Position numbers and translations under genes: made by a program. Shown in pieces: positions 48,897-60,414 of a DNA stretch of 64,000 nt (its first letter is position 1; each line of letters starts with the position of its first letter). Below the pieces are notes generated by a model. That model worked only from the letters and a program-made list of their open reading frames with translations, did not search any database and was not told the DNA's origin. This DNA is from Demequina sediminicola (GTDB taxonomy: Bacteria; Actinomycetota; Actinomycetes; Actinomycetales; Demequinaceae). The stretch is taken from positions 124,001 through 188,000 of the forward strand of contig NZ_BBRB01000003.1 in NCBI RefSeq assembly GCF_000975055.1, written 5' to 3'.

Positions 48897-49595
48897 CTAC
48901 GCCTGTGCAACAACAGCGCGATACGCCTCGGCGGCAGCAGCTTGCTCGGCATGCTTCTTCGCGGATCCCACACCGGTACCCAAGGCCACACCATCGACGG
49001 TCACGGTCGCGGTGAACGTGCGGGCATGGTCCGGTCCCTCACCCTCGCAGGTGTAGACCGGAGCGGGCCTGCCATGCTCGGAGCAGGCCTCTTGCAGCGA
49101 CGTCTTCCAATCGAGTGCCACGCCAGAGGTGGCGGCCGCCTTGAGGTGCCCGTCCACCAAGCGCAACACCATGTCGCGCGCTTCGTCAATTCCGTGGGTC
49201 AGATACACCGCGCCAATGAGCGCCTCGACGGCATCACACAGGATGGAGTCTTTGTCTGCGCCACCCGTGGTGCGCTCGCCCTTGCCCAACAAAATGCAGG
49301 GTCCAAGGTCGATTTCACGCGCTATTTCAGATAGCGCCTTCTGAGAAACCGTGGCGGCACGCATCTTCGCGAGGTCGCCTTCCGGCAAATCAGGGTGATC
49401 GCGGTAGAGGCGATCGGTGACCACGATGCCGAGCACGGAGTCACCTAGGAACTCGAGGCGCTCATTCGTGGGAAGCCCACCCGCCTCGTAGGCGAAAGAG
49501 CGATGAGTAAGCGCGAGGACAAGTAGTTCGGGGTCGATAGTGACACCGAGGCGCGCCACCAGGGCATCGGCTGCTGCCTGGCCCGGAATGGTCAC
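48897..49595 (-). CDS. rnc: Ribonuclease III
   Basis: A double-strand-specific endoribonuclease for rRNA and mRNA processing. The signature ERLEFLGDSVLGIVV, then KDSILCDAVEALIGAVYL with the second acidic pair, define the nuclease domain (about 1-150). The dsRNA-binding domain (about 160-230) has DWKTSLQEACSEHG and GSAKKHAEQAAAAEAY. It starts with GTG at 49595. Besides its housekeeping role it is the expected enzyme for cutting the tracrRNA:crRNA duplex of the type II-C system 2 kb away. Confidence 0.97.
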   Translation of the reverse strand: MTIPGQAAADALVARLGVTIDPELLVLALTHRSFAYEAGGLPTNERLEFLGDSVLGIVVTDRLYRDHPDLPEGDLAKMRAATVSQKALSEIAREIDLGPCILLGKGERTTGGADKDSILCDAVEALIGAVYLTHGIDEARDMVLRLVDGHLKAAATSGVALDWKTSLQEACSEHGRPAPVYTCEGEGPDHARTFTATVTVDGVALGTGVGSAKKHAEQAAAAEAYRAVVAQA

Positions 49596-51591: not shown

Positions 51592-51699
51592 CAAAAAGAA
51601 AACGGCCCCACGAGGGAGCCGTCTCATCTTGTGGAGTCCTGATCCAACAAGTTTCTCCTTGTTAGCGGCAGAGCCCATTTCCCAGAGCGATAGGTTGTG
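51592..51699 (-). ncRNA. tracrRNA of the type II-C CRISPR-Cas9 system
   Basis: Predicted RNA of about 108 nt. It begins at about 51699 with an anti-repeat (51661-51696) that pairs with the minus-strand repeat over about 33 bp, including 18 unbroken pairs (CCTATCGCTCTGGGAAAT side). A hairpin AACAAG-gagaaa-CUUGUU and a short middle section follow, then a terminator hairpin with stem ACGGCUCC/GGGGCCGU (51602-51622) and the run UUUUCUUUUU. Its -35 and -10 boxes are close to consensus. It is divergent from cas9, and its terminator ends 28 bp before the rsmD start. Confidence 0.92.
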
Positions 51700-51705
51700 A
51701 TGACT

Positions 51706-51734
51706 TTTATACACGCAGTGTCAGAGGGTGTCAA
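51706..51734 (-). promoter_or_regulatory. tracrRNA promoter
   Basis: On the minus strand TTGACA (51734-51729), a 17-bp spacer and TATAAA (51711-51706). This is a near-perfect sigma-70/SigA promoter, and the expected start at about 51699 is the first base of the anti-repeat region. Confidence 0.88.
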
Positions 51735-51741
51735 TACCCTC
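51724..51741. promoter_or_regulatory. Palindrome around the tracrRNA -35 box
   Basis: GAGGGT-gtcaat-ACCCTC is a perfect 6+6 bp inverted repeat whose centre is the -35 element of the tracrRNA promoter. A protein bound here would block tracrRNA and perhaps cas9, whose ATG is 53 bp further on. No regulator is known. Confidence 0.45.
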
Positions 51742-51794
51742 AAGTTTGGCGGATTCACGCCGATAACACGAACATACATTAGGGGGAGCATTAC

Positions 51795-54700
51795 ATGACT
51801 GGCACTGACGCCACAGCACACTCGCACACGCCGTACCGCCTCGGGCTCGATGTAGGGACAGGATCTTTGGGTTGGGCCGTCGTTGAACTCGATACCGACG
51901 GCAATCCTGTCCGCATCGTGCGCACCGGCTCGCGGATCTATGGGAGCGGGCGCAAACCCAAGGACTTTTCATCGTTAGCGGCCGACCGGCGTGCCGCACG
52001 TCAGATGCGCAAGCAACGCGACCGCTATCTTCAACGCCGCACGCGCCTCATGCATGAACTGGTGGCCGCCGGTCTGATGCCCGAGGCCGAGGTGGAGCGG
52101 CAGAAGCTCAAGGATCTCAACCCCTACCTGCTACGCGCTCGTGGGGTTAAAGAGGAACTGACCGCCCACGAACTTGGCAGGGCTCTCTTTCATCTCCAGC
52201 AGCGCCGTGGCTTCAAGTCAAATCGCAAGACAGACCGCAAGGACGACGACCGCAGCGCGATGAAGAGCGCCATCGCATCGCTCCAATCCGACTTGGGCGA
52301 CGACACCCTTGGCACGTACATGTGGAAGCGGATCCAGAACGGCGAATCTGTGCGGTCCCGTCCGCGAAAGGTCGGGTCAAAGAACGAGTACGACTTTTAC
52401 GTGAACCGCGCGATGGTCGAGGATGAGTTCAATCAGTTGTGGGACTACCAAAGCCAGTCCCACGGCGACCTCCTCACGGACGAAGCCCGCATCCGCGTTC
52501 ATGACGCCATCTTTAGCCAACGTCCGCTCAAGCCGGTGGACCCGGGGCGCTGCACGTTCGAAACAGATCAGCGACGCGCACCGAAGGCACTCCCGAGCTC
52601 TCAACTGTTCCGCATCTACCAAGAACTTAACGCGATCAGAGTGATCGATCCGTTCTCATCAGACCAAGCAGATCGACCCCTGACGCGTCAGGAGCGCGAT
52701 GCCGGCGCATCGTTCCTCCTGGGCAGGGTGAAGGCCACCTTCCCTCAACTCAAGAAGGCGATGTTTGGGCCCACAAAGCTCCAACTCTCACTTGAGTACG
52801 GAGAACGCAAGAACATCCTGGGTGACGTCGTAGGAAGCGAGTTGCGCAAAGCGCAGCACATCGGCCCAGACTGGGAGACGTATGACCTCGCCACCCAGGA
52901 CCTCATCGTGACGATCCTGCTCGAGGCAGACACTGACGATGAAGTGATCGAGCGGCTTCAGGCTGAGTCGTCGCTATCGCTCGATCAGGTCCACGGCGCG
53001 CTTGAGGCACCACTCCCGGACGACTACCTACGGCTGAGCCATCGTGCGATTGGCAAGATCCTGCCTCATCTCAAGGATGAATGGAATGAAGAGGGCAATG
53101 CACCGGTGATGTATGACGCGGCCGTCCGTGCCGCGGGATACCAATCGCACTCAGAGTTCCACAGCGGTGTTCTTGAAGACACGCTCCCCTATTACGGGAA
53201 GGTGCTGAAGCGATACACGCAAGAGGTCTCCGGGAGCAGCCAAGCTGCTACGAACCCTGACGAATGGGAGTTCGGCAAGATCGCCAATCCGACCGTGCAC
53301 ATCGGCCTCAATCAGATCCGCACCGTCGTGAACTCACTGATTGACCGCTACGGCCTGCCCACACAGATTCATGTCGAGGTAGCCCGCGACTTGGGCCAGT
53401 CGGCTGAGGGAAGGCGTGAAGCAGCGTCCAACCGTGCCAAGAATGAACGAGCAAACGAAGCGCTCAACGCCCGCCTGACCGAACTGGGACAACGCACCAA
53501 CTTTGCCAATCGGGAGCGGCTGCGCCTCTACGATGAGATCTCAGTCCTCAATCACAGGTGTGTCCTGACAGGCATCCCCATCGAGATGTCGCGACTGTTC
53601 ACCAATGACTATCAGGTTGACCACATCCTGCCGTTCTCCCGGACCCTGGACGACTCGCGCGGAAACAAGATTCTGGTTCACCACACGGCCAATCAGTTCA
53701 AGGGCGCCCGGAGCCCCTTCGAGGCATACTCGGAGACGGCAGACTGGGATCACATCCTTCAACGCGCAAGCGATGCCTTTGGCGCTACGAGCCCCAAGTT
53801 CAAGCGCTTTTCTGCCGACGCCATGGACAGGTACTCGAACGGCGAGCAAGACTTCATCGCCCGCCAACTCAACGACACCAGCTACCTGGCACGAGTGACA
53901 CGCGAGTATCTAGGGAGCATCGTGGATCCCGACCGGATCCTAGCCACACCGGGCAGACTTACTTCGCTCTTGCGCCACCACTGGGGGCTCAATGGCCTGC
54001 TATCCGATGCCGCGGAGAAGAACCGCTCAGATCACCGGCACCACGCCATCGATGCCCTTGTCGTTGCACTCAGTGAGCGAGTAACTCTAAAGGCCGTCAC
54101 CGACGCCAACCGTCGTGCCGGTGACCAAGGCATCGAACGCTTGCTAGTCGACCTCCCCCAGCCGTGGGAGGGCTTTGCGGATCATGCCCGTGAGTCTGTT
54201 GATCGCATTGTGGTGTCTCACAAGCCAGATCACAATGAGAAAGGCCAGCTCCACGAAGAGACCGCCTATGGAGTCCTGGAAGGGCCCGACAAAAAGGGCA
54301 GGTTCCTCACCCGCAAGCGCATCACGGACCCTGCCAAAGGTGTGGTAGGCAGTTGGGAGCAACCCAAGTGGCGTGACGTCATTCCGCTGTACAGGCGCGG
54401 CGAGGGGCCAGACTCGACCCTTCCCTACAAGGCTTACATTGGCGGCTCCAACTACTGCATCGAGATCGTCCGAACTGCCAAGGGGAAATGGGCTGGGGAG
54501 GTAGTCTCCACGCACACCGCCAACACGGCCGAGTATCGCGCTTTCATGGCAGAGCCGGGCGCGTATCGCGCCCAGAGTTACGCCGGTGGTGACCTCGTCA
54601 TGCGGCTCATCGCCAATGACACCATCGCAATCGAAGTCGGCGATGCGGGTCGCCAGATCATGAGGCTGTGCCAGTTGGAGACGGTCGGAGCTATGTACTT

Positions 54701-54860
54701 CGCAAATGTGCGTGAAGGCAACGTCGCAGCACGTTCACGGGCTCGAGACAACGACTTTTCGTTGCTCAAGAAGGCGGCAAGCACACTTCAGCCACTCAAG
54801 GCTCGGAGAGTCTTTGTTGATCCCATTGGCAGGGTTTTTGACCCTGATTTCAAGGAGTAG
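51795..54860 (+). CDS. cas9: Cas9, compact type II-C
   Basis: RNA-guided DNA endonuclease of 1021 residues, in the small size class of the Campylobacter (984) and Neisseria (1082) enzymes. RuvC-I is YRLGLDVGTGSLGWAV (D19), the Arg-rich bridge helix is at about 61-90, and the recognition lobe at about 95-500. RuvC-II is IHVEVARDL (E528), HNH is YQVDHILPFSRTLDDS with catalytic H610 (N624 and N633 follow), and RuvC-III is HRHHAIDALVVAL (H750, D753). The last 230 residues would form the wedge/PAM-reading part. All catalytic residues are present. The ATG follows AGGGGGAG. cas1 starts 3 bp after the stop. No csn2 or cas4 is present, which with the size defines II-C. Confidence 0.98.
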   Translation: MTGTDATAHSHTPYRLGLDVGTGSLGWAVVELDTDGNPVRIVRTGSRIYGSGRKPKDFSSLAADRRAARQMRKQRDRYLQRRTRLMHELVAAGLMPEAEVERQKLKDLNPYLLRARGVKEELTAHELGRALFHLQQRRGFKSNRKTDRKDDDRSAMKSAIASLQSDLGDDTLGTYMWKRIQNGESVRSRPRKVGSKNEYDFYVNRAMVEDEFNQLWDYQSQSHGDLLTDEARIRVHDAIFSQRPLKPVDPGRCTFETDQRRAPKALPSSQLFRIYQELNAIRVIDPFSSDQADRPLTRQERDAGASFLLGRVKATFPQLKKAMFGPTKLQLSLEYGERKNILGDVVGSELRKAQHIGPDWETYDLATQDLIVTILLEADTDDEVIERLQAESSLSLDQVHGALEAPLPDDYLRLSHRAIGKILPHLKDEWNEEGNAPVMYDAAVRAAGYQSHSEFHSGVLEDTLPYYGKVLKRYTQEVSGSSQAATNPDEWEFGKIANPTVHIGLNQIRTVVNSLIDRYGLPTQIHVEVARDLGQSAEGRREAASNRAKNERANEALNARLTELGQRTNFANRERLRLYDEISVLNHRCVLTGIPIEMSRLFTNDYQVDHILPFSRTLDDSRGNKILVHHTANQFKGARSPFEAYSETADWDHILQRASDAFGATSPKFKRFSADAMDRYSNGEQDFIARQLNDTSYLARVTREYLGSIVDPDRILATPGRLTSLLRHHWGLNGLLSDAAEKNRSDHRHHAIDALVVALSERVTLKAVTDANRRAGDQGIERLLVDLPQPWEGFADHARESVDRIVVSHKPDHNEKGQLHEETAYGVLEGPDKKGRFLTRKRITDPAKGVVGSWEQPKWRDVIPLYRRGEGPDSTLPYKAYIGGSNYCIEIVRTAKGKWAGEVVSTHTANTAEYRAFMAEPGAYRAQSYAGGDLVMRLIANDTIAIEVGDAGRQIMRLCQLETVGAMYFANVREGNVAARSRARDNDFSLLKKAASTLQPLKARRVFVDPIGRVFDPDFKE

Positions 54861-54863
54861 GCG

Positions 54864-55790
54864 ATGATCGGGCGAGTAGTCGAGGTCGTCGAGGCTGACC
54901 GTCGCATAACGGTCGAATACGGGAATCTCATCATCTGCTCGTCCACCTTGAGGATTGGGCAAGTCGCCTTGGATGACATCCAATCGGTTGTCCTCAATCC
55001 CCACGGCGCCACGATCTCGGCGGGTGCGATTGCCGCGCTCGCCGAGCGTGGTGTGCCCGTAGTAGTGGTAGGTAGGAACTTTGCACCAATCGCAACAGTC
55101 TTGCCTATGTTTGGCCACCACGAGATCTCACGTCGCATCGAGATTCAGTCCGCTATCTCTCAACCAGCGAGGAAGCAGGCATGGAGGCAAATCGTCAGAG
55201 CCAAGATCGGAATGCAAGCCCTTGCCCTCGAGGCCTACGGCATCGACTCGGCGCCAGTGAGAAACCTAGTTGCACGGGTGAGGTCAGGAGATCCGGAGAA
55301 CCTCGAGGCCCAAGCTGCCAGGCTGTACTGGCGGCGGCTCTTCGGTCCGGACTTTCGACGGGATCACGACCTACCTGGCGTGAACGCCTTGCTGAACTAT
55401 GGCTACGCAATCATCCGATCTGCGACGGCACGATCGATCGTTGCGGTCGGGCTGCATCCGAGTCTGGGCGTTCATCATCGGAACACAGGCAACCCGATGT
55501 GTTTGGTTGATGATCTGATGGAGCCGTTCCGTCCCCTAGTAGATGTACGGGTCCGTGCAATCGTCGAAGAGGACCCTGATGCGTGCGTGGAGCCATCAAC
55601 CAAGAAGATGCTCGTGGCGATCCTCAGCACTGACGTTTCGCTGGCGACAGGGTCCTCCCCTGTCTCCCTTGTGATCCACAAGGCTGCACATTCGTTGGTG
55701 CAGTACCACCTTGGCGAGTCCAAGCGACTCGCGTTCCCGGACCGTGCTTGTGAAGAGACTATGCAAGCGCTCTCTGAGGCATACCAATGA
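54864..55790 (+). CDS. cas1: Cas1 integrase
   Basis: Catalytic subunit of the Cas1-Cas2 spacer integrase, 308 residues. It has an N-terminal beta domain (about 1-85) and a helical catalytic domain. The expected metal ligands are E148 in NLEAQAARLYWR, H205 in GLHPSLGVHHRN and E220 in LVDDLMEPFRP, matching the pattern of type II Cas1 proteins. It starts 3 bp after cas9 and overlaps cas2 (ATGA), so the three genes are one operon. Codon choice looks looser than in the neighbouring ribosomal and repair genes. Confidence 0.97.
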   Translation: MIGRVVEVVEADRRITVEYGNLIICSSTLRIGQVALDDIQSVVLNPHGATISAGAIAALAERGVPVVVVGRNFAPIATVLPMFGHHEISRRIEIQSAISQPARKQAWRQIVRAKIGMQALALEAYGIDSAPVRNLVARVRSGDPENLEAQAARLYWRRLFGPDFRRDHDLPGVNALLNYGYAIIRSATARSIVAVGLHPSLGVHHRNTGNPMCLVDDLMEPFRPLVDVRVRAIVEEDPDACVEPSTKKMLVAILSTDVSLATGSSPVSLVIHKAAHSLVQYHLGESKRLAFPDRACEETMQALSEAYQ

Positions 55791-56116
55791 GCGAGCTATC
55801 GGGGTACAGACTCATGTGGCTAGTTGCACTGTTTGATCTACCGGTCAGGACCAAGGCTGAGCGTCGTGAAGCGACTCTCTACAGGAAGCGCCTACTCGAG
55901 CAAGGATTCTCGATGGCACAGCTCTCGGTATACATGAAGTTCTGTCGCGACAAGGAGCAGTCGGAGATCATCATCAGGAAACTCTCTCAAGATGTTCCTG
56001 AGGGCGGGCGGGTCGACATACTCATGATCACTGACAGGCAGTACGCTGGGATCGTCACAGTACGTGACAACGAGCGAGTCAGACGGAAGAACCCGTCGCA
56101 ACTCTCGTTGTTCTGA
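55787..56116 (+). CDS. cas2: Cas2, adaptation subunit
   Basis: A 109-residue partner that bridges two Cas1 dimers. The ferredoxin-like start YRLMWLVALFDLPVRTKAERREA carries the conserved Asp (about D17), and the remaining strands follow (FSMAQLSVYMKFC, RVDILMITDRQYAGIV). The last five residues are QLSLF, identical to the consensus of beta-sliding-clamp binding peptides, exposed at the C-terminus after a basic stretch. Codons such as CTA and AGG are frequent. The leader hairpin and the array follow after 26-72 bp. Confidence 0.96.
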   Translation: MSELSGYRLMWLVALFDLPVRTKAERREATLYRKRLLEQGFSMAQLSVYMKFCRDKEQSEIIIRKLSQDVPEGGRVDILMITDRQYAGIVTVRDNERVRRKNPSQLSLF

Positions 56117-56142
56117 CACCTGGAGGACGGTTTTGAGCGCTG

Positions 56143-56188
56143 AGATGGCGGCGAACCTCCCGTTCTACCAGGAGTTTCACCGCCATCT
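56143..56188. promoter_or_regulatory. Long hairpin abutting the first CRISPR repeat (putative leader)
   Basis: AGATGGCGGCGAA (56143-56155) and TTCACCGCCATCT (56176-56188) form a 13-bp inverted repeat with a single mismatch; an inner CTCC/GGAG extends it. The right arm ends at the base before the first repeat. There is no T-run on either side. It may mark the integration leader, bend DNA for Cas1-Cas2, or end minus-strand array transcripts. Confidence 0.6.
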
Positions 56189-58399
56189 AGCCTATCGCTC
56201 TGGGAAATGAGCTCTGGCCGCAACTTCATGCACGAAGTCCTCCGCCGCATGTCCAGCCTATCGCTCTGGGAAATGAGCTCTGGCCGCAACAGGGACTCCA
56301 TCGCATCCAAAGACCTAGAGAGCCTATCGCTCTGGGAAATGAGCTCTGGCCGCAACTGGGAGCCGAGACCCCCTGGGGTATGGCTAAGCCTATCGCTCTG
56401 GGAAATGAGCTCTGGCCGCAACGCAATGGTGGTCGTGTCCTTGAAAGCCAAGAGCCTATCGCTCTGGGAAATGAGCTCTGGCCGCAACGCTTCGCGCTCC
56501 AGCCGTTCGGCTTCGTCAGCCTATCGCTCTGGGAAATGAGCTCTGGCCGCAACCCGCATTGCACGCGGGGCGTGAACGTCTCGAGCCTATCGCTCTGGGA
56601 AATGAGCTCTGGCCGCAACTCCAACGCACTGCGCCGCATCGTCGTGTCAAGCCTATCGCTCTGGGAAATGAGCTCTGGCCGCAACCGAGAATCCCTGGTA
56701 GCGCTTCTGGTGAAGAGCCTATCGCTCTGGGAAATGAGCTCTGGCCGCAACATCCGTAACCTCGTACAGACCGCGAGCGAGAGCCTATCGCTCTGGGAAA
56801 TGAGCTCTGGCCGCAACTAGCCGGTGCCGTTGGGTTCAATCGTGAAAAGCCTATCGCTCTGGGAAATGAGCTCTGGCCGCAACCTCAAGGACCACTACGA
56901 AAGCCCCGTGTAGAGCCTATCGCTCTGGGAAATGAGCTCTGGCCGCAACGCTATCGTGGTCGGCATCAAGTGGCTGCGTAGCCTATCGCTCTGGGAAATG
57001 AGCTCTGGCCGCAACATCAACGAGTCCGGCTACAACGCAATGGTCAGCCTATCGCTCTGGGAAATGAGCTCTGGCCGCAACGTGTTGGCTCGAGGCGTGC
57101 GCGGGCCTGGAGCCTATCGCTCTGGGAAATGAGCTCTGGCCGCAACGTTCTCGAGGGACGCTGGGGGTGGCGTGGAGCCTATCGCTCTGGGAAATGAGCT
57201 CTGGCCGCAACCGGTCCTTTCACTTCCTTGTGGACCTGGTAAGCCTATCGCTCTGGGAAATGAGCTCTGGCCGCAACCACCACCGTGACCTAGCGCGAGG
57301 TGGAGCAAGCCTATCGCTCTGGGAAATGAGCTCTGGCCGCAACTGCAGATAGCCACGCGAAGATCACGGTCATAGCCTATCGCTCTGGGAAATGAGCTCT
57401 GGCCGCAACCTATGCGGGCGTTGCCGATTGGAAGCCAAAAGCCTATCGCTCTGGGAAATGAGCTCTGGCCGCAACAGCGCCCACTAGGTGCCATTGCCGG
57501 TTCTCAGCCTATCGCTCTGGGAAATGAGCTCTGGCCGCAACCGATCCATCTCCGCTCGCACGTCGGCGCTAAGCCTATCGCTCTGGGAAATGAGCTCTGG
57601 CCGCAACGCCGGTCCGCATGCGCAGTCGTCGCCTTCGAGCCTATCGCTCTGGGAAATGAGCTCTGGCCGCAACAAGGTGAGTAGCAAGAAGCGCCCGATT
57701 GGAAGCCTATCGCTCTGGGAAATGAGCTCTGGCCGCAACACGGTGACGGTTGCCGTGTTGAAGTCGTCGAGCCTATCGCTCTGGGAAATGAGCTCTGGCC
57801 GCAACGACCGACTCGCAGCACTCGAAGTTAGCGCCAGCCTATCGCTCTGGGAAATGAGCTCTGGCCGCAACCGTCCCGCCATCGACCTTGCCGCCGCAGT
57901 AAGCCTATCGCTCTGGGAAATGAGCTCTGGCCGCAACTGGAGCCACGCGCGCCCACAATGGAGTGGGAGCCTATCGCTCTGGGAAATGAGCTCTGGCCGC
58001 AACCGCGGCGGCATCAGTCACGGGGATGACGTCAGCCTATCGCTTTGGGAAATGAGCTCTGGCCGCAACAAGGCCGCGAAGGTTGAGGCGTTGCTGGGTA
58101 GCCTATCGCTCTGGGAAATGAGCTCTGGCCGCAACCGCGGCGGCATCAGTCACGGGGATGACGTCAGCCTATCGCTCTGGGAAATGAGCTCTGGCCGCAA
58201 CTTGATTCCAGACACGGGCATGCTTCCGTGAAGCCTATCGCTCTGGGAAATGAGCTCTGGCCGCAACTGCGACGAGCGTGTTGAGTAGCGCGTCCACAGC
58301 CTATCGCTCTGGGAAATGAGCTCTGGCCGCAACTTAGAGTCTGACGTGCTCGATGATCTGGTGAGCCTAGCGCTCTGGGAAATGAGCCCTAGCTACATC
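56189..58399 (-). CRISPR. Type II-C CRISPR array, 34 repeats and 33 spacers
   Basis: The 36-bp repeats begin (plus strand) AGCCTATCGCTCTGGG and end CTCTGGCCGCAAC. They start at 56189 and recur every 66 bp, except for three 65-bp steps, so there are 30 spacers of 30 bp and three of 29 bp (after the repeats at 56453, 57046 and 57111). The repeat at 58034 has one C-to-T change. The last repeat, at 58364, is decayed in its right third. Spacers 58004-58033 and 58136-58165 are identical. Pairing with the tracrRNA shows that crRNA comes from the minus strand. I found no spacer match inside the window. Confidence 0.98.
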
Positions 58400-58635
58400 C
58401 ATCAGCTCAGTCATGCCGGAGGCGTCATCAGTGAGACGGTTTGGAAAGCCGGGAAGGCGGAGTGCCGCAAACCCTGAGATGATTCTGGCCACTCCCCCAG
58501 CCGATGGCCCGCTGAGGGGTGTGAGTCAGTCGGTGCGGTGCGGATCTCCGTGTGTCATTCGCCACACGGGCTCTACCAGGCATACCTGACAACCGTAGGG
58601 TGGCCTTGCAGCCTGAGAATCCGAGGGGAACACCG
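58400..58635. other. Region between the array and the cellulase gene
   Basis: A gap of 236 bp with no gene I can support. It should hold the cellulase promoter. I see no cellulase-type operator palindrome (such as TGGGAGCGCTCCCA) and no clear -35/-10 pair. Confidence 0.4.
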
Positions 58636-60414
58636 TTGAGTGAGAGCGACACAACCGAGTGGTGGCGACAGCCCCGCGTCATCATCCCTGGCGCTGCAGG
58701 AGCCGCGCTGCTGCTTGTCGCCGGCGGGTGGTTTCTTGGCCGGGTCATGAACTCGGAGAGCGACGGAGAGACACGTGCCGTTGATGCGTCTCCAAGTGCC
58801 GCCGTGAGCTCAGAGCCAACGTCATCGCCGACGCTCGTGCCGGCCTGTAGCGCGAAGGTTGACGTGACGGCGGAATGGGACGGTGGCTACCAAGCTGACA
58901 TCACTGTGAAGGCCGAGGGGATTGATATTCCGGACTGGGAAGTCGCGTTCGACCTTGGGGACTCGTCCGTCACCGGAGCGTGGAACAGCACGCTGAAGGT
59001 GGGAACCACCGGTACAGCCACGGCCGCCAATGTGAGCTATAACGGCACCCTCACCGCTGATGAGACGACCGTGTTCGGGTTCACAGCAGACGGCGAGCCG
59101 ACCATCGGCGATGCCACATGCGCGTCATCGGTCCAAGCAGAGGCTGAACCGAACGATAGCGCCGACGCGGCAGCGGACCCAGCCGATGTCTCCGCCCCCG
59201 TCAATGCCGCCAGTGGCGACGATTGGCTGAGCGTCGACGGCAACTCCCTCGTCGACGCGCAGGGCAACCACGTCTGGCTGACCGGGGCGAACTGGTTTGG
59301 TTTCAATACCTCCGAGCGGGTGTTGCATGGCCTGTGGTCAGTGAACCTTGAGGACACGATGGCTGCCTATGCCCAGCACGGCCTGAACGTCATCCGCATT
59401 CCTATCTCGACAGAGGTGTTGATGGAATGGCGGGCGGGGAACGCTGAGACCACCACCAACGTCAACACGTCCGCCAACCCTGAACTCGAGGGCTTCACCA
59501 CCCTTGAGGTCTTCGACGAGTTTCTTGCAATCTCGAAGAAGTACGGCGTGAAGGTCATCCTCGACGTGCACTCCGCTGAGGCAGACAACGCCGGGCACAT
59601 TGCACCTCTATGGCACACCGCTTCCGTCTCTGAAGACGACTTCTTTGTCGCGTGGGAGTGGGTTGCCGAGCGCTATCGCAACGATGACACGATCATCGCC
59701 TTCGACCTTCAGAACGAGCCGCACGGTAAGCCGCCAGAGGCCGACCGTGCGACGTGGGGCGACGGCGGAGCCAACGACTGGCGGGCCGTGGCGACTGAGG
59801 CTGCTGAACGCATCCACGCGATCCACCCGGACATTCTGCTGCTGGTCGAGGGCATCGAAGCCACTCCGTCGAGCGGATCATCGTGGTCGAGCAATGATCC
59901 TGGCGACTATGACATCACTTGGTGGGGCGGGAATCTCCGTCTCGCCGGCGAGCAGCCTGTCACAGGCGCACCCGGCAAGATCATGTACTCGCCCCATGAC
60001 TACGGACCGCTGGTGTACGAACAGCCGTGGTTCCAGGGATCCTTTAGCGCTGCGAGCCTCGAAAAGGACGTGTGGGACCCCACCTGGCTGTACTTGCACG
60101 ATGAGGAAATCTCTCCGCTCCTCATCGGTGAGTGGGGTGGACGCATGGGTGATGACGACCGCCAGGACCGCTGGCTAGTCGCTCTTCGGGACCTCATTGA
60201 AGACCGCGAACTCCACCACACCTTCTGGTCACTGAACCCCAACTCTGGAGATACCGGCGGGCTGTTGCTTGATGACTGGACCACGTGGGACGCCGACAAG
60301 ATGGACCTTCTTGAGCCGGTGCTGTGGCGCGATGCCTCGGGGGCAGGTGTCAGCCTCGATCACCAGATCCCACTGGGGTCCTCGGGAGTTTCTCTGGGCG
60401 AGTACTACTCGTAA
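58636..60414 (+). CDS. Membrane-anchored CBM2-GH5 cellulase
   Basis: A putative endoglucanase of 592 residues acting outside the cell. It has a short cytoplasmic start (SESDTTEWWRQPR), one membrane helix VIIPGAAGAALLLVAGGWFLG, a Ser/Thr/Pro linker and a CBM2-like cellulose-binding module (about 75-170, CSAKVDVTAEWDGGYQADITV, ended by a Cys). A second linker leads to the GH5 barrel (about 195-585), with acid/base E361 in AFDLQNEPHG and nucleophile E499 in LLIGEWGG. I prefer the TTG at 58636 preceded by GAGGGG; an earlier in-frame GTG at 58552 lacks such a site. With the GH3 enzyme it forms a cellulose-use set. Confidence 0.88.
   Translation: MSESDTTEWWRQPRVIIPGAAGAALLLVAGGWFLGRVMNSESDGETRAVDASPSAAVSSEPTSSPTLVPACSAKVDVTAEWDGGYQADITVKAEGIDIPDWEVAFDLGDSSVTGAWNSTLKVGTTGTATAANVSYNGTLTADETTVFGFTADGEPTIGDATCASSVQAEAEPNDSADAAADPADVSAPVNAASGDDWLSVDGNSLVDAQGNHVWLTGANWFGFNTSERVLHGLWSVNLEDTMAAYAQHGLNVIRIPISTEVLMEWRAGNAETTTNVNTSANPELEGFTTLEVFDEFLAISKKYGVKVILDVHSAEADNAGHIAPLWHTASVSEDDFFVAWEWVAERYRNDDTIIAFDLQNEPHGKPPEADRATWGDGGANDWRAVATEAAERIHAIHPDILLLVEGIEATPSSGSSWSSNDPGDYDITWWGGNLRLAGEQPVTGAPGKIMYSPHDYGPLVYEQPWFQGSFSAASLEKDVWDPTWLYLHDEEISPLLIGEWGGRMGDDDRQDRWLVALRDLIEDRELHHTFWSLNPNSGDTGGLLLDDWTTWDADKMDLLEPVLWRDASGAGVSLDHQIPLGSSGVSLGEYYS

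What the first reader, a model, noticed from the sequence alone, without database searches (positions are those of the whole stretch)
51592..58399. Complete compact type II-C CRISPR-Cas9 locus with tracrRNA, adaptation genes and a 33-spacer array
The window shows every part needed: tracrRNA, a 1021-residue Cas9 with intact RuvC (D19, E528, H750, D753) and HNH (H610) residues, Cas1, Cas2 and a large uniform array. A Cas9 of this size from an actinobacterium is of interest for its PAM and tracrRNA layout. Activity is not proved, but nothing is broken.
Basis: partly seen in the sequence, partly recalled or inferred. Interest (0 to 1): 0.75.

Follow-up and report, generated by a model that had tools for sequence, protein, structure and literature searches.

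The report
Complete CRISPR-Cas9 locus, type II-C
This is an intact-looking CRISPR-Cas9 immune system of a well-known kind (type II-C) in an actinobacterium; sequence trees say its lineage came from proteobacteria, and three of its stored memories match a phage found in a sister species, but its machinery is ordinary.

Summary
At 51592-58399 there is a full type II-C locus: tracrRNA, cas9 (1021 aa, all five named catalytic residues in place), cas1, cas2, and 34 repeats (33 near-identical plus one degenerate) enclosing 33 spacers, 32 of them different. Comparative work adds: (1) tracrRNA and crRNAs are both read from the minus strand; the tracrRNA is divergent from cas9, conserved in relatives, and pairs with almost the whole repeat. 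(2) The repeat ends in a TAnnnT box found in 24 of 26 related arrays, as expected for repeat-embedded promoters; the cas-distal "extra" repeat has weakened tracrRNA pairing but kept the box. Both are published II-C features. (3) The Cas9 is not of native actinobacterial stock: it nests in a proteobacterial clade, occurs in 2 of 44 genomes of its genus, and sits in a junction (rsmD/recG) that is closed in sister species. (4) Three spacers match one prophage of a same-genus species. PAM, expression and activity remain untested.

The parts
51592..51699 (-). tracrRNA: anti-repeat 51694-51661, invariant UAACAAG core, rho-independent terminator 51625-51599
   Evidence: anti-repeat to the array repeat, only strong non-array match; terminator; conserved in 12 aligned relatives with covarying terminator stem; fold z -2.8
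51706..51734 (-). tracrRNA promoter-like site TTGACA-N17-TATAAA; same -35 and spacing in G012 (TTGACA-N17-CAGGAT)
   Evidence: read from sequence; the consensus scan leaves it out because it demands T at the last position of the second hexamer
51795..54860 (+). cas9, 1021 aa, intact RuvC and HNH residues
54864..55790 (+). cas1, type II, 308 aa
55787..56116 (+). cas2, 109 aa
56117..56188 (.). leader side (spacer-acquisition end inferred): cas2-to-array gap, with 9-bp inverted repeat AGATGGCGG/CCGCCATCT touching repeat 1
   Evidence: sequence; the opposite array end is the degenerate, old end
56189..58399 (-). CRISPR array, 34 repeats / 33 spacers; crRNA-sense repeat GTTGCGGCCAGAGCTCATTTCCCAGAGCGATAGGCT ending in TAGGCT
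58364..58399 (-). extra (oldest) degenerate repeat: five changes in the first 14 nt plus one at position 30, TAGGCT box kept; tracrRNA pairing -49.0 vs -63.2 kcal/mol

Best explanation
A complete chromosomal type II-C CRISPR-Cas9 immune system. Cas1-Cas2 add spacers at the cas2-side end of the array. Each repeat carries its own -10 box (TAGGCT) at its 3' end, so short crRNAs start inside each spacer and run through the next repeat on the minus strand, toward the leader. The crRNA repeat pairs with the divergently transcribed tracrRNA, and Cas9 with the duplex cuts matching phage DNA. The locus descends from a proteobacterial II-C lineage, entered an ancestor in this actinobacterial genus at the rsmD-recG junction, and has since been lost or never gained by most sister species. 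Shown here: gene content, residues, RNA complementarity and conservation, box conservation, tree position, filled versus empty site, phage matches. Inferred: expression, promoter function, spacer uptake, cleavage, direction of transfer.
For: Families and residues. tracrRNA at the same place and strand in 15 of 16 other loci examined, core UAACAAG invariant in the 13 aligned, 11 of 15 predicted pairs with compensatory changes; near full-length repeat:anti-repeat duplex. T31 and A32 in 26/26 and T36 in 24/26 repeats of related arrays with free middle bases. Cas-distal repeat degenerate mostly outside the box in about half of the arrays, as published for II-C (PMC12080349; transcription toward the leader PMC8092290). 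Tree: window + same-genus G012 inside a 24-row otherwise proteobacterial clade, SH-aLRT 99; one clade of all actinobacterial Cas9s rejected, p-AU 3e-8. Cas1 and Cas2 nearest to the same group. Empty site in relatives. Spacers 29, 22 and 28 match one G036 prophage with 3, 5 and 6 mismatches; shuffled spacers gave none at 5 or fewer and 0.4 on average at 6 or fewer in 780 kb.
Against: No expression or activity data. No -35 is recognisable for the repeat box, and the scan found no sigma-70 consensus promoter in the array. No exact protospacer found; no PAM derived. Spacer 29 alone also resembles a Streptomyces NRPS gene, so single weak matches prove little; the case rests on three in one prophage. 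Only a sample of actinobacterial genomes was searched.
Confidence: 0.88

Rival explanations
1. An intact but silent relic: the genes were inherited but the array is no longer expressed or updated.
For: Only 2 of 44 genus genomes keep the system; no consensus promoter found in the array; no exact match to known phages.
Against: 1021-codon cas9, cas1 and cas2 all open; 32 identical repeats; tracrRNA:repeat complementarity kept over almost the whole repeat; related phage present in the genus.
Confidence: 0.08
2. crRNAs are made as one long precursor from a promoter outside the array and cut by RNase III, as in II-A, rather than from repeat promoters.
For: rnc (RNase III) is intact 2 kb away (48897-49595); no -35 seen in the repeats.
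Against: TAnnnT conserved at the repeat end in 24 of 26 arrays; the extra repeat keeps it while losing pairing bases; published II-C arrays use repeat promoters (PMC8092290, PMC12080349), although one II-C study found none in its species (PMC5006608).
Confidence: 0.25
3. The clade is simply patchy and old in both phyla; no cross-phylum transfer into this genus is needed.
For: Same neighbourhood in both carriers and Cas9 divergence (63-65% identity) like that of housekeeping neighbours (54-71%) show long residence in the genus.
Against: No other close member in 396 sampled genomes of the phylum and 99 relatives, many in Pseudomonadota; AU test.
Confidence: 0.12

Closest known systems
Type II-C systems of Pseudomonadota, nearest named: Limnohabitans sp. 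TEGF004 plasmid pTEGF4 (cas9 WP_281891455.1)
   Same: Order tracrRNA(-) cas9 cas1 cas2 array; Cas9 of 1015 aa; 36-nt repeat ending TAnnnT; tracrRNA core CUAACAAG
   Different: Cas9 39-41% identical; different repeat sequence; plasmid-borne
Neisseria/Campylobacter-type II-C with repeat-embedded promoters
   Same: Repeat length, GTTG start, TAnnnT end, array read against the cas genes, degenerate extra repeat (PMC12080349, PMC8092290). The L096 repeat is, from memory, that of N. meningitidis
   Different: Cas9 of that branch is 26-29% identical; TAGGCT lacks the TGn extension of TGCTACAAT
II-C Cas9s with solved structures (9ar4 and others, about 1082 aa)
   Same: Best PDB sequence matches; RuvC, HNH and part of the recognition lobe align
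   Different: The part after about residue 800, where the PAM-interacting domain lies, does not align, so a PAM cannot be borrowed
Same-genus species G012, contig C123
   Same: Cas9 63-65% identical, same tracrRNA, same rsmD neighbourhood
   Different: Contig ends inside cas9, so cas1, cas2 and array are not seen; an EAL-type gene (read by eye) lies between tracrRNA and rsmD

Membership tests
CRISPR-Cas type II-C | Cas9 effector with RuvC and HNH nuclease residues | tested here: met
CRISPR-Cas type II-C | Only cas9, cas1, cas2; no csn2 (II-A) and no cas4 (II-B) in the locus | tested here: met
   No other gene between tracrRNA and array; single Cas1 in the genome
CRISPR-Cas type II-C | Type II Cas1 and Cas2 | tested here: met
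   TIGR03639, Cas1_II, Cas2_II
CRISPR-Cas type II-C | tracrRNA complementary to the repeat | tested here: met
   expression not tested
CRISPR-Cas type II-C | Cas9 falls among II-C Cas9s in a tree | tested here: met
   Groups with loci that share II-C layout and repeats, apart from the about 1380-aa actinobacterial Cas9s; no named reference Cas9 was in the tree
II-C with repeat-embedded promoters | -10 box at the 3' end of every repeat, array read toward the leader | tested here: inconclusive
   Box and degenerate-repeat pattern present; no -35, no transcript data
CRISPR-Cas type II-C | RNA-guided DNA interference with a 3' PAM | not testable with these tools
   Three imperfect protospacers, 3' flanks GGCAAAGT, CATCGAAC, CGCAACAT

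The most novel reading that the evidence does not exclude
Repeat-embedded crRNA promoters work in an actinobacterium because the conserved bases, TAnnnT, also fit the actinobacterial -10 box, which would let II-C systems cross phyla with their expression signals intact.
Probability: 0.45. Interest if true: 0.45.

Novelty: new member of a known kind. Interest (0 to 1): 0.3.

Why it matters
The machinery is textbook II-C. What it adds is a clear case of a proteobacterial-lineage Cas9 system living in an actinobacterial chromosome, with its empty site, a same-genus orthologue and a matching prophage at hand. That makes it testable whether self-contained promoters in the repeats help these systems move between phyla. 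The Cas9 is also an uncharacterised 1021-aa enzyme whose C-terminal, PAM-reading part does not align with solved relatives by sequence.

Tried and rejected
Spacers against 50,697 phage records and 72,556 plasmids gave only chance-level hits. Exact 20-mers of spacers 1 and 20 had no match in IMG/VR. Spacer matches in G010 and G012 fell in chromosomal genes (murD, gap), those in G024 and G059 were isolated; all were put down to chance. The observed totals on the last line are spoiled by a masked spacer (N against N); only its individual rows and the shuffle counts are used. A PAM was not called. Rfam gives no tracrRNA hit in the window. Self-targeting: listed matches of the spacers in the own genome were the array itself and otherwise nothing better than E about 1. 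Mobile-element insertion of the locus: no integrase, transposase or clear target duplication at the borders.

Full report
Observation. The window is G000:C9:124001-188000 of a 2.46-Mb actinobacterial genome in 11 contigs. Cas9 is one open frame of 1021 aa with the five catalytic residues in their motifs; Cas1 is of the type II family, Cas2 is clear. The array has 34 repeats and 33 spacers, two of which (28 and 30) are the same, so 32 different spacers. The genome has no other Cas1 and no second match to this Cas9.

Strands and RNA parts. The anti-repeat 51661-51694 lies on the minus strand, and a terminator (GAGACGGCTCCCTCGTGGGGCCGTTTTCTTTTT) follows it on that strand. So the tracrRNA is read leftward, away from cas9, and crRNAs must be read from the minus strand of the array. 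Upstream of it is TTGACA-N17-TATAAA (51734-51706), and the same-genus G012 has TTGACA-N17-CAGGAT in register (read). The consensus scan did not report it because it requires T at the last position. The consensus repeat pairs with the tracrRNA over almost its full length (-63.2 kcal/mol; shuffled repeats -24.5 +/- 3.2). In relatives the tracrRNA lies upstream of cas9 on the same strand in 15 of 16 loci examined (in L086 the best match was on the other strand); the UAACAAG core is invariant in 13 aligned sequences and the terminator stem shows compensatory changes.

How crRNAs are probably made. In 24 of 26 related arrays the repeat ends TAnnnT in crRNA sense: T31 and A32 in all, T36 in 24, the three middle bases free. 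That is the pattern of a -10 box. The window's box is TAGGCT. The cas-distal repeat 58364-58399 differs at six places, five of them in the first 14 nt, and keeps the box; its pairing with the tracrRNA drops to -49.0 kcal/mol. About half of the relatives show the same kind of terminal repeat. This agrees with published II-C work: arrays are transcribed from repeat promoters toward the leader (PMC8092290), new spacers enter at the last repeat, and the oldest, extra repeat collects mutations in its first 15 nt while it may have to stay a promoter (PMC12080349). So the old end here is the cas-distal end and new spacers should enter next to cas2. No -35 element was found, so promoter function is an inference.

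Origin. Outside the genus the nearest Cas9s are from Pseudomonadota at 39-45% identity. Among 99 relatives only G012 has a close one (65%), and none of 396 sampled genomes of the phylum does; their own Cas9s match weakly over parts. In a 48-row tree the pair nests in an otherwise proteobacterial clade of 24 rows (SH-aLRT 99), nearest to Limnohabitans and two others (94). Holding all actinobacterial Cas9s in one clade is rejected (p-AU 3e-8). Cas1 and Cas2 are nearest to the same group. GC is about 57-60% in the locus against 61-65% around it.

Site. In G009 the matches of rsmD and the GH5 cellulase lie 26 bp apart where the window has about 7 kb; G043, the closest by rsmD (93%), also lacks the locus. 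In G012 cas9, tracrRNA and rsmD are on one contig, so both carriers have the system in the same neighbourhood. Cas9 has diverged about as much as rnc, coaD and rsmD between the two. The simplest account is one entry in the genus and many losses; repeated entry at one spot is not excluded.

Targets. Spacers 29, 22 and 28 match one prophage of same-genus G036 (also IMGVR_UViG_2690315954_000001) with 3, 5 and 6 mismatches; shuffled spacers gave none at five or fewer in 780 kb of phage DNA. The region codes for phage terminase, portal, protease and head proteins. Spacer 28 lies in the portal gene and all six mismatches are at third codon positions that keep the protein DVIPVTDAAA, so the spacer was probably taken from a relative of this phage. 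The flanks are too few and too imperfect for a PAM.

Judgement. Observation confirmed and interpretation supported. Nothing lies outside the known II-C plan. The cross-phylum origin and the shared TAnnnT signal are the parts worth following.

Noticed in passing
51719-51733: TGTCA-N5-TGTCA (plus strand) between the divergent tracrRNA and cas9 starts, also present in G012 (L065); could be an operator as well as the -35.
   Followed up: no
56143-56188: 9-bp inverted repeat AGATGGCGG/CCGCCATCT in the cas2-to-array gap, ending exactly at the first repeat.
   Followed up: no
48897-49595: rnc (RNase III), the housekeeping enzyme used by type II systems, lies 2 kb from the tracrRNA; the rnc-coaD-rsmD order is conserved in relatives without CRISPR.
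   Followed up: partly
58552-60414: GH5 cellulase-like secreted gene between array and recG; present in some sister species, apparently reduced in G043.
   Followed up: partly
57968-58165: Spacers 28 and 30 are identical and flank the only internal mutated repeat (58034-58069): a local duplication or repeated uptake.
   Followed up: no
L008, L104: cas9 is split in Azospirillum thermophilum and carries an in-frame TAG in a gammaproteobacterial MAG: possible decay in relatives.
   Followed up: no
L010, L060, L061, L064: Plasmid-borne cas9 genes of related kind with no cas1/cas2 annotated nearby (Pseudosulfitobacter, Nitrobacter, Bosea, Marinibacterium).
   Followed up: no
L126 7229-19901: Prophage in same-genus G036 with head and packaging genes, matched by three spacers of the window.
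   Followed up: yes
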